Assembly (NCBI GenBank): GCA_944327085.1
Contig: CALVGG010000005.1
Span: forward strand, 62,001-126,000
Length of the DNA: 64,000 nucleotides
DNA from: an uncultured Elusimicrobiales bacterium
Lineage (GTDB): Bacteria; Elusimicrobiota; Elusimicrobia; Elusimicrobiales; Elusimicrobiaceae
Direction: 5' to 3'
Position 1 is the stretch's first letter; each line of letters opens with the position of its first letter. The position numbers were made by a program, and so were the translations under genes. The notes under the pieces were generated by a model, which was not told the origin of the DNA, did no database searches, and saw only the letters and a list, made by a program, of their open reading frames with translations. Shown here piece by piece: positions 51,840-55,064 of this stretch.

Positions 51840-52877
51840 ATGGCATTTGAACGCTTTAAAAAATTAAACTTAGACCCGCTGATAGCCAAACAGCCGGCCA
51901 CCCCGCGCGACAGCGCCCGCCAAATGGTGCTCCACCGCGATACCCACACCATCAAACACCGCATTTTTAGAGACATTCACGAATATCTAAACCCCGGCGA
52001 CACGCTGGTAATGAACAACACCAAAGTATTCCCCGCCAAACTGTTTGCCCACAAACCCACCGGCGGCAAGGTGGAAATTTTACTGGTGCGCCCCACCGTG
52101 AATAACCGCACCTGGGCTGTGCTTACGCGGGATTATAAAGAAGGCATCACGCTGGATTTTGGAGACGGCCTAAACGCCAAAGTGTTGGGCAAAACGGAAA
52201 ATAACGAGGCTGTACTGGAATTTAATACGGACGACATCCTCCCCTTCTGCCACGCGCACGGCCTTATGCCTTTGCCCCAATATATTGAAAAAGCCCGCAA
52301 ACACAGCGGCCTTACCCCCAGCATAGAAACGGACAAAGAACGCTATCAAACCGTGTATGCCAAGTACGAAGGCTCCATCGCCGCGCCCACGGCCGGCTTT
52401 CACTTTACGCCGGAACTTTTGCAAAAAATAAAAGACAAAGGCGTTAATATTGCCTACATTACCCTGCATGTGGGGTGGGGCACTTTTAAACCTCTGCGCG
52501 GGGAACCGCAGGAGCACCATATGCTGGCCGAACTGGGCGAAATCTCCCCCCAAACGGCCGATTTGGTAAACCAAACCCACGCCAACGGCAAGCGGGTATT
52601 TTCCGTAGGGACCACCAGCACCCGCACGCTGGAAAGCTTTACGGATGATGACCGCCACACCCACAGCGGCAAAAAATGGACGGACCTGTTCATCTACCCC
52701 GGTTATAAATTTAAAGCCATTGACTGCTTAATTACCAACTTTCACTTTCCGGACTCTACACCTTTGTGTATGACGTCCGCCTTTGCCGGCGAAGATTTTA
52801 TTTACGAGGCCTACCTGCAAGCGGTGGAAAAGAAATACCGTTTCTACTCGTTTGGGGACAGCATGATGATTTTATAA
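51840..52877 (+). CDS. queA: tRNA preQ1 ribosyltransferase-isomerase
   Basis: A 345-residue QueA, which uses S-adenosylmethionine as ribosyl donor to make epoxyqueuosine on tRNA. Signatures: TPRDSARQMVL, MNNTKVFPAKL, SIAAPTAGFHFT, YITLHVGWGTFKP and the C-terminal FHFPDSTPLCMTSAF. Together with tgt 1 kb downstream it covers the two committed steps of queuosine formation on tRNA. An AAGGA site lies in the end of the preceding gene, with the junction TAATTATG. Confidence 0.96.
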   Translation: MAFERFKKLNLDPLIAKQPATPRDSARQMVLHRDTHTIKHRIFRDIHEYLNPGDTLVMNNTKVFPAKLFAHKPTGGKVEILLVRPTVNNRTWAVLTRDYKEGITLDFGDGLNAKVLGKTENNEAVLEFNTDDILPFCHAHGLMPLPQYIEKARKHSGLTPSIETDKERYQTVYAKYEGSIAAPTAGFHFTPELLQKIKDKGVNIAYITLHVGWGTFKPLRGEPQEHHMLAELGEISPQTADLVNQTHANGKRVFSVGTTSTRTLESFTDDDRHTHSGKKWTDLFIYPGYKFKAIDCLITNFHFPDSTPLCMTSAFAGEDFIYEAYLQAVEKKYRFYSFGDSMMIL

Positions 52878-52942
52878 TTATTTAGTATAGTAACAATATA
52901 TTTATTTTAAAAGAACAAATGTTTTAAGGAGTATTTATTAAA

Positions 52943-53204
52943 GGCGCAGCAACGCCGGGAAGTTACAATTTCACTATTTTTGGAACCGAACATTGTTTGG
53001 TGAGCTTTTAACTTAGTTAAAGGCATTCTTAACGTCCAAAAATAGTCGTTTGAGGCATAGAAAACTGGAACTGATCCCTCTGGTTTTTTATGCCAAGTGT
53101 TTTCGTGTTTTTATAAAGCACGAAAACCACGGCTATTATATTTGGGTTACGTTAAGAAGCTCAAGTTTAATGGCCGTTTTTTATGGCAGTTCCTAAAAAG
53201 TGAA
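52943..53204 (+). ncRNA. Candidate structured RNA between queA and yrbL
   Basis: This 360-bp gap has no open frame but strong nested pairing. A closing stem joins TTCACT, TTTT and GGAAC (52970-52986) to GTTCC, AAAA and AGTGAA (53189-53204). Inside, TGAGCTT (53001-53007) pairs with AAGCTCA (53157-53163), stacked on CTTAACGT (53028-53035) with ACGTTAAG (53149-53156). That stem encloses two hairpins: 15 bp (53054-53068 with 53080-53094) and 9 bp (53099-53107 with 53119-53127). A short GGCG hairpin precedes (52943-52956). It could be a cis leader of yrbL or an independent RNA. I could not match it to tmRNA, RNase P, SRP, 6S or preQ1 riboswitches. Confidence 0.55.
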
Positions 53205-53236
53205 GGATCGTCCATCACAACAACCAGGAGGCCATA

Positions 53237-55064
<1,828 letters not shown>

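What the first reader, a model, noticed from the sequence alone, without database searches (positions are those of the whole stretch)
52943..53204. Unrecognised, strongly folded RNA candidate between queA and yrbL
The region encodes no protein, yet its pairs nest into one coherent shape: a long closing stem, a two-part inner stem (TGAGCTT/AAGCTCA stacked on CTTAACGT/ACGTTAAG), and two inner hairpins of 15 and 9 bp. Five independent helices nesting without conflict over 235 nt is unlikely by chance in AT-rich DNA. It ends 32 bp before a gene start with an AGGAGG site, so it may be a leader controlling yrbL, or a free-standing RNA. It matches no class I know.
Basis: partly seen in the sequence, partly recalled or inferred. 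Interest (0 to 1): 0.75.

Follow-up and report, generated by a model that had tools for sequence, protein, structure and literature searches.

The report
Multi-copy switching RNA leader in Elusimicrobiota
The sequence is one copy of a previously undescribed RNA switch that sits at the start of up to about 50 different genes per genome (pili, sugar coats, DNA-defence enzymes) in a phylum of gut bacteria; it appears to turn genes on or off by folding in two mutually exclusive ways, and it probably pairs up with copies of itself.

Summary
The folded RNA is real. The window region folds far better than shuffles (z -7.3), has no Rfam match and has homologues in 95 of 341 genomes of its phylum, with 0 to 56 copies per genome. 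160 of 164 copies examined share their strand with the downstream gene, which starts a median of 43 nt beyond the RNA; 125 of 165 have a strong -10-like box just upstream.

The RNA carries two mutually exclusive, conserved folds. In one, the last hairpin plus a U-run forms an intrinsic-terminator-like structure. In the other, a long helix closes a three-way junction and captures that hairpin's 5' strand. In 153 of 157 copies the antiterminator is the best fold just before the terminator is completed; in 148 of 157 the terminator is the best fold afterwards. This indicates a transcription attenuator.

Two features are unusual. The 10-bp central helix differs in every copy of a genome. The apical loop of P2 switches between many palindromes, as in dimerising RNAs. 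Downstream genes resemble those that are phase-variable in other bacteria. The yrbL copy is one instance; yrbL itself is interrupted here. Input signal and dimerisation are untested inference.

The parts
52880..52945 (+). 5' part of the module: putative promoter region and the AAGGAG motif at 52926-52931
   Evidence: Across copies, 125 of 165 have a strong -10-like box within 80 nt upstream of the core (36 in shuffles). In the window itself the -10 is weak (TATAGT near 52887), so the promoter here is inferred.
52943..52956 (+). 5' hairpin P0 (GGCG/CGCC), sequence variable between copies
   Evidence: Read from sequence; similar small hairpins before P1 in many copies.
52974..52983 (+). S1, 5' strand of P1 (CUAUUUUUGG); sequesters S2 in the terminated state
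   Evidence: P1 93% of cells paired on A1.
52986..53000 (+). Hairpin P1a
   Evidence: Compensatory changes in all 4 consensus pairs.
53004..53024 (+). Hairpin P1b
   Evidence: Compensatory changes in all 5 consensus pairs.
53026..53035 (+). 5' strand of the copy-specific central helix (UUCUUAACGU)
   Evidence: Median 10 contiguous bp within a copy vs 4 when strands of different copies are combined; 110 distinct strands in 126 copies; all distinct in G041 (40/40) and G136 (34/34).
53036..53049 (+). S2 (CCAAAAAUAGUCGU): pairs with S1 (P1) or with S3 (antiterminator)
   Evidence: S2:S3 97% of cells paired on A1; >=7 bp in 147/166 copies vs 5% with shuffled S3.
53054..53094 (+). Hairpin P2; its loop holds the palindrome GAUC at 53073-53076
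   Evidence: 15 of 16 pairs with compensatory changes; loop palindromes 19/29 distinct loops vs 2.2 expected, control loops 0.
53097..53127 (+). Hairpin P3
   Evidence: 9 of 11 pairs with compensatory changes.
53129..53137 (+). S3 (ACGGCUAUU): 5' strand of the terminator hairpin, captured by S2 in the antiterminated state
53149..53158 (+). 3' strand of the central helix (ACGUUAAGAA), in the loop of P4
53129..53183 (+). Hairpin P4 followed by a U-run: putative intrinsic terminator
   Evidence: P4 93% paired; U-run of 5 or more in 146 of 166 copies. The simple terminator scan does not report it because it allows loops of only 3-8 nt.
53226..53231 (+). Shine-Dalgarno AGGAGG
   Evidence: Read from sequence.
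53237..53866 (+). yrbL, interrupted by in-frame TGA at 53360-53362
   Evidence: Homologue in G046 intact (89% identity), Pfam PF10707 E 6.6e-35.

Best explanation
This is one copy of a new family of 5'-leader RNAs, about 220 nt of conserved core, that control the downstream gene by transcription attenuation. Each copy brings its own promoter. As the RNA is made, P1 (S1:S2), P2 and P3 form first. When the 3' strand of the copy-specific central helix emerges, it can pair with its 5' partner and act as a toehold: S2 leaves S1 and pairs with S3, giving one long helix that closes a three-way junction with P2 and P3. In that state the terminator cannot form and the gene is transcribed. If S2 stays with S1, or S4 wins S3 back, hairpin P4 plus the U-run ends transcription before the gene. 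Shown by computation: conserved homologues, co-directional placement, covariation of both folds, mutual exclusivity, and the change of best fold with transcript length. Inferred: that P4 terminates in the cell, and that the palindromic P2 loop pairs with the same loop of a second leader (kissing dimer), so that leader concentration or a ligand or protein shifts the balance. The signal is unknown.
For: Energy z -7.3. 38 of 63 consensus pairs with two-sided compensatory changes. Both folds far above shuffles and slid controls: covariation score 0.557 vs 0.218 +/- 0.010 and 0.499 vs 0.224 +/- 0.008, 0/500 shuffles. S2:S3 >=7 bp in 147/166 vs 5% for shuffled S3. A187 in S3 occurs with U84 in S2 and never with C84; in L141, L150 and L153 the S2:S3 pair is kept although A187 mismatches in P4, and in L140 likewise at column 184, so S2:S3 is selected independently of P4. 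S3 pairs S2 in 153/157 truncated and S4 in 148/157 complete transcripts. Own promoter-like box and U-run; 160/164 co-directional, median 43 nt to start, SD found in 149. Palindromic loops: 19/29 vs 2.2 expected; controls none; loop 6-mer hardly commoner elsewhere in the same leader (17/98) than in other leaders (14%), so no partner within the molecule. The same argument was used for OLE L9.3, switching GGCC/GAUC/AGCU, in PMC12286853.
Against: No transcription data: neither termination nor read-through was observed. Much of the S2:S3 evidence is conservation plus few varying positions, and related copies are not independent. S2:S3 is shortened or bulged in about a tenth of copies and absent in the weak own copy L172. 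CCAAA:UUUGG reaches 5 bp in only 99/166 copies. The terminated fold is also the thermodynamic minimum, so without a trigger the element may simply terminate. Some P2 loops are not palindromic (UCGCU, CUCAUUA, CUCGCUA, GACG type), and the commonest palindrome UAAUUA is all A-U and would kiss weakly. In the window the promoter box is poor.
Confidence: 0.68

Rival explanations
1. A classical riboswitch: the same terminator/antiterminator, but the P1 region or the P2/P3 junction is an aptamer for a small molecule common to all copies (for example a signal controlling surface structures).
For: Attenuator architecture; a shared regulon with surface genes; conserved junction segments such as GUCGU and CGAGU.
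Against: The downstream genes share no metabolic theme, and 35 of 40 copies in one genome precede prepilins. Conserved junction bases are few (junction identities 0.49-0.73). The palindromic loop and copy-specific helix are not needed for a riboswitch.
Confidence: 0.3
2. A protein-responsive leader: a phylum-specific RNA-binding protein or NusG-type factor binds the invariant P4/P3 parts and sets the balance.
For: The base of P4 (ACGGCU...RGCCGU) is nearly invariant in A1, more than a terminator needs; surface-gene regulon like that of RfaH-class factors (own knowledge).
Against: No candidate protein was sought; invariance is also explained by S3 having to pair with both S2 and S4.
Confidence: 0.2
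3. A free-standing small RNA with its own promoter and terminator; the gene behind it is incidental.
For: Own promoter-like box and terminator.
Against: 160/164 copies share the strand of the next gene, at a short distance with an SD; the antiterminator fold would have no purpose.
Confidence: 0.07
4. A proliferating DNA repeat (MITE- or REP-like), whose hairpins serve transposition and whose structure is only inherited.
For: 0 to 56 copies per genome; clean presence/absence of the module between queA and yrbL; the same central-helix sequence sometimes precedes different genes in different genomes.
Against: Copies in one genome are strongly diverged (central helix 30% identical) yet keep both folds by compensatory change; strict co-direction. 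Mobility and function can both be true. Terminal repeats and target duplications were not examined.
Confidence: 0.08

Closest known systems
Transcription attenuators with terminator/antiterminator switch (riboswitch, T-box and pT181-type leaders)
   Same: 5' leader, terminator hairpin with U-run, a competing upstream strand that captures the terminator's 5' arm.
   Different: No match to any Rfam riboswitch or T-box model; a copy-specific 10-bp helix as toehold; a palindromic loop; up to about 50 copies per genome before unrelated genes; no ligand or antisense RNA known.
OLE, ROOL and GOLLD ornate RNAs (PMC12286853)
   Same: Symmetric kissing loops recognised by a loop that switches between palindromes; in OLE L9.3 GGCC/GAUC/AGCU.
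   Different: Those are longer RNAs with known oligomer structures; this one is a 220-nt leader with no Rfam relation to them, and no oligomer has been seen.
HIV-1 dimerisation initiation site
   Same: Six-nt palindrome in an apical loop (DIS in PMC7357161); here usually two bases before it and one after, a layout like that of the DIS loop (own knowledge).
   Different: Viral genome packaging; GC-rich palindrome. Here many different, mostly AU-rich palindromes in a bacterial leader.
Phase-variable (contingency) gene control
   Same: Similar set of controlled genes: pilins, glycan enzymes, restriction-modification genes (review PMC11868660).
   Different: No DNA inversion or repeat-length change was seen; the control would be in RNA.

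Membership tests
Any family of Rfam 15 | Covariance-model score at or above the gathering threshold | tested here: not met
   Only the tRNA matches in the window; best matches in the region and in consensus-like copy L009 are chance.
Intrinsic-terminator attenuator leader | Located 5' of and on the strand of the controlled gene | tested here: met
   160/164 co-directional, median 43 nt.
Intrinsic-terminator attenuator leader | Terminator hairpin with U-run and a mutually exclusive, conserved antiterminator | tested here: met
   (computational).
Intrinsic-terminator attenuator leader | Regulated termination in vivo | not testable with these tools
   No transcript data held.
Riboswitch | Binding of a small-molecule ligand by the RNA | not testable with these tools
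   No ligand suggested by the gene set.
T-box leader | Match to the T-box model (specifier loop and antiterminator bulge) | tested here: not met
   No Rfam hit.
OLE / ROOL / GOLLD | Sequence-structure match to the family model | tested here: not met
   No Rfam hit.
OLE / ROOL / GOLLD | Palindrome-switching loop indicating symmetric intermolecular pairing | tested here: met
   argument as in PMC12286853. A shared feature, not membership.
OLE / ROOL / GOLLD | RNA homo-oligomer observed | not testable with these tools
   Needs mass photometry or cryo-EM.
pT181-type attenuator | Antisense RNA encoded opposite the leader | tested here: inconclusive
   A minus-strand promoter-like site (53164-53135) exists in the window; it looked poor in the two other copies checked by eye, and was not counted across copies.
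MITE / REP repeat | Terminal inverted repeats, target-site duplication | not tested
   Only the queA-yrbL junction was inspected.

The most novel reading that the evidence does not exclude
A portable, self-recognising RNA switch class: a promoter-leader module that spreads in front of surface and defence genes throughout a genome. It decides read-through by RNA-RNA contact between leaders (palindromic kissing loops shared by classes of genes), while each copy keeps a private toehold helix so that it switches only in cis. This would be an RNA-level counterpart of phase-variable control.
Probability: 0.25. Interest if true: 0.92.

Novelty: new variant of a known kind. Interest (0 to 1): 0.82.

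Why it matters
I know of no other large cis-regulatory RNA that occurs up to about 50 times in a 1.5-Mb genome before unrelated genes (own knowledge; none turned up). It would give the first handle on how Elusimicrobiota control their very large sets of pilin-like genes, glycan genes and restriction enzymes. The set of naturally varied leaders, each with a private helix and one of about ten palindromes, makes it directly testable whether bacterial mRNAs regulate themselves through RNA dimerisation.

Tried and rejected
Rfam at gathering and permissive thresholds: nothing. Viral contigs, phages and plasmids: none. A prepilin-specific function was rejected: the window's genome has 52 prepilin matches, but its 4 copies precede yrbL, a pyruvyl transferase, a DNA methylase and an McrB-like AAA protein. 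A link to yrbL was rejected. Within-genome avoidance of shared central helices: all strands differ, but the deficit of 8-mer sharing (2 seen, 4.6 expected) is not significant, and cross-complementarity is equal within and between genomes, so active orthogonality is not shown. An intramolecular partner for the P2 loop was rejected.

Full report
OBSERVATION. Window 52900-53240 folds at -112.7 kcal/mol; 100 dinucleotide shuffles give -73.4 +/- 5.4 (z -7.33). The region lies between queA (51840-52877) and yrbL (start 53237), has its own SD before yrbL, and matches no Rfam family.

HOMOLOGUES. A plain DNA search of 101 relatives found matches in 30 genomes, all of the same genus, often several per genome at about 70% identity. 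Twenty-six full copies were aligned (A1); RNAalifold gave 63 pairs, 38 with two-sided compensatory changes. A covariance model (R1) found copies in 95 of 341 genomes of the phylum: nearly all genomes of genus g1, all 18 of g15, and scattered genera of a distant family f21. With laxer filters, counts are 4 copies in the window's genome, and 50 matches in G041, 56 in G136, 20 in G045, 22-25 in two f21 genomes, 0 in G029. Contig lengths tie G001 to Candidatus Avelusimicrobium excrementipullorum and G300 to Endomicrobium, so g1 is Avelusimicrobium-like and f21 Endomicrobium-like. G118, one contig of 1,643,562 bases, is E. minutum Pei191 by size (own knowledge). Pattern hits outside the phylum did not hold up, and phages, plasmids and viral contigs gave nothing.

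CONTEXT. For 166 copies with flanks, the downstream gene was examined: in 160 of 164 the coding strand equals the RNA strand, the start codon lies a median of 43 nt behind the RNA, and an SD was found in 149. In G041, 35 of 40 copies precede prepilins. Elsewhere they precede a polysaccharide pyruvyl transferase, LicD, glycosyltransferases, DUF4422, type III and EcoRI-type methylases, HsdR- and PLD/helicase-type proteins, an McrB-like AAA protein, TPR proteins, and lipoprotein- or signal-peptide-like proteins. 125 of 165 have a strong -10-like box within 80 nt upstream (36 expected from shuffles), and 146 of 166 have a run of five or more T after the last hairpin. In G041 and G036 queA is followed directly by yrbL, with the SD overlapping the queA stop; in G000, G046, G048 and G001 the RNA module lies exactly between them (about 360 bp in the window). 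The module is therefore gained or lost separately from the gene.

ANATOMY. Core elements, 5' to 3': P1 (S1:S2) enclosing hairpins P1a and P1b and the 5' strand of a central helix; P2; P3; then P4 (S3:S4) with the 3' strand of the central helix in its loop; then the U-run. The central helix has a median of 10 contiguous pairs within a copy and 4 when strands from different copies are combined; 110 of 126 strands are distinct, and all 40 in G041 and all 34 in G136 differ. Its sequence identity between copies is 0.30, lower than any other helix segment measured (0.38-0.99). It is identical in the four yrbL orthologues, L001-L004.

TWO FOLDS. S2 (CCAAAAACAGUCGU in the consensus) is complementary both to S1 and to S3 (ACGGCUGUU). 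S2:S3 is paired in 97% of cells of A1, central helix 87-88%, P1 93%, P4 93%. S2:S3 reaches at least 7 bp in 147 of 166 copies against 5% with shuffled S3. The telling variants (column numbers of A1): S3 carries A187 only where S2 carries U84, never with C84. In L141, L150 and L153 this keeps S2:S3 although A187 then mismatches in P4, and L140 does the same at column 184. Energies: terminated fold without the central helix -84.7, antiterminated -77.1 kcal/mol on average. For transcripts ending at the 3' strand of the central helix, S3 pairs S2 in 153 of 157 copies; for complete elements S3 pairs S4 in 148 of 157. In the window the change can be followed step by step: S2:S3 and the central helix are the best fold at ends 53156-53162, P4 from 53177. 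That is the behaviour expected of a transcription attenuator.

PALINDROMIC LOOP. The P2 loop is usually NN-palindrome-N, with UAAUUA, UUAUAA, UCAUGA, UUGCAA, UUCGAA, UCUAGA, UAGCUA, GAUC, AGCU or GGCC. Of 29 distinct loops, 19 hold a palindrome of six or more (2.2 expected, maximum 9 in 2000 shuffles), against none in P3, P1a and P1b loops. Adjacent bases of one loop cannot pair with each other, and the loop sequence is not repeated elsewhere in its leader more than expected, so pairing between two molecules is the natural reading. Kretsch et al. used the same reasoning for OLE and GOLLD (PMC12286853). A minority of copies have non-palindromic loops, so dimerisation, if real, is not universal.

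HOW IT MOST LIKELY WORKS. Shown by computation: the family, its placement, the two folds, the order in which they become favourable. Inferred: P4 terminates transcription; the central helix is the toehold for antiterminator formation; the P2 loop dimerises leaders and biases the choice. Because the controlled genes are of the kind that is phase-variable elsewhere (PMC11868660), a stochastic or concentration-dependent switch is attractive, but no evidence here separates it from control by a ligand or protein.

KNOWN OR NEW. It works like a transcription attenuator and meets the computational features of one. It is not a member of any Rfam family. The palindrome-switching loop is shared with OLE and GOLLD, which is a resemblance, not membership. 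I therefore call it a new variant of a known kind: a new RNA family with two unusual additions.

Noticed in passing
window 53360-53362: yrbL is interrupted by an in-frame TGA where the G046 homologue has a glycine codon; the G048 homologue has two stops. The leader stays well conserved in front of these damaged genes.
   Followed up: partly
L030, L299, L317, L324 (P2): A minority form of P2 is shorter and carries a GACG/CCGACGG motif instead of a palindromic loop; possibly another contact motif.
   Followed up: no
window 52926-52931 and upstream of P1 in many copies: An AAGGAG motif and a small hairpin often precede P1, without a conserved start codon behind them. Role unknown.
   Followed up: no
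window 53164-53135, minus strand: Promoter-like site TTGAGC-18-TATAAT inside the RNA on the opposite strand; it could give an antisense RNA, but looked poor in two other copies checked by eye.
   Followed up: partly
G000, G041, G136, G029, G118: Very many prepilin (N_methyl) matches per 1.4-1.7-Mb genome: 52, 114, 108, 58 and 80, only some with this leader.
   Followed up: partly
L104 (E. minutum-sized genome G118, 1542027-1545203): A weak copy (41 bits) precedes a zinc-ribbon gene of the MALIKCNEC type that also carries strong copies in g15 genomes.
   Followed up: no
L019, L026, L129 and other pairs: The same central-helix sequence appears in different genomes before different genes, suggesting that leader modules are exchanged between loci.
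   Followed up: partly
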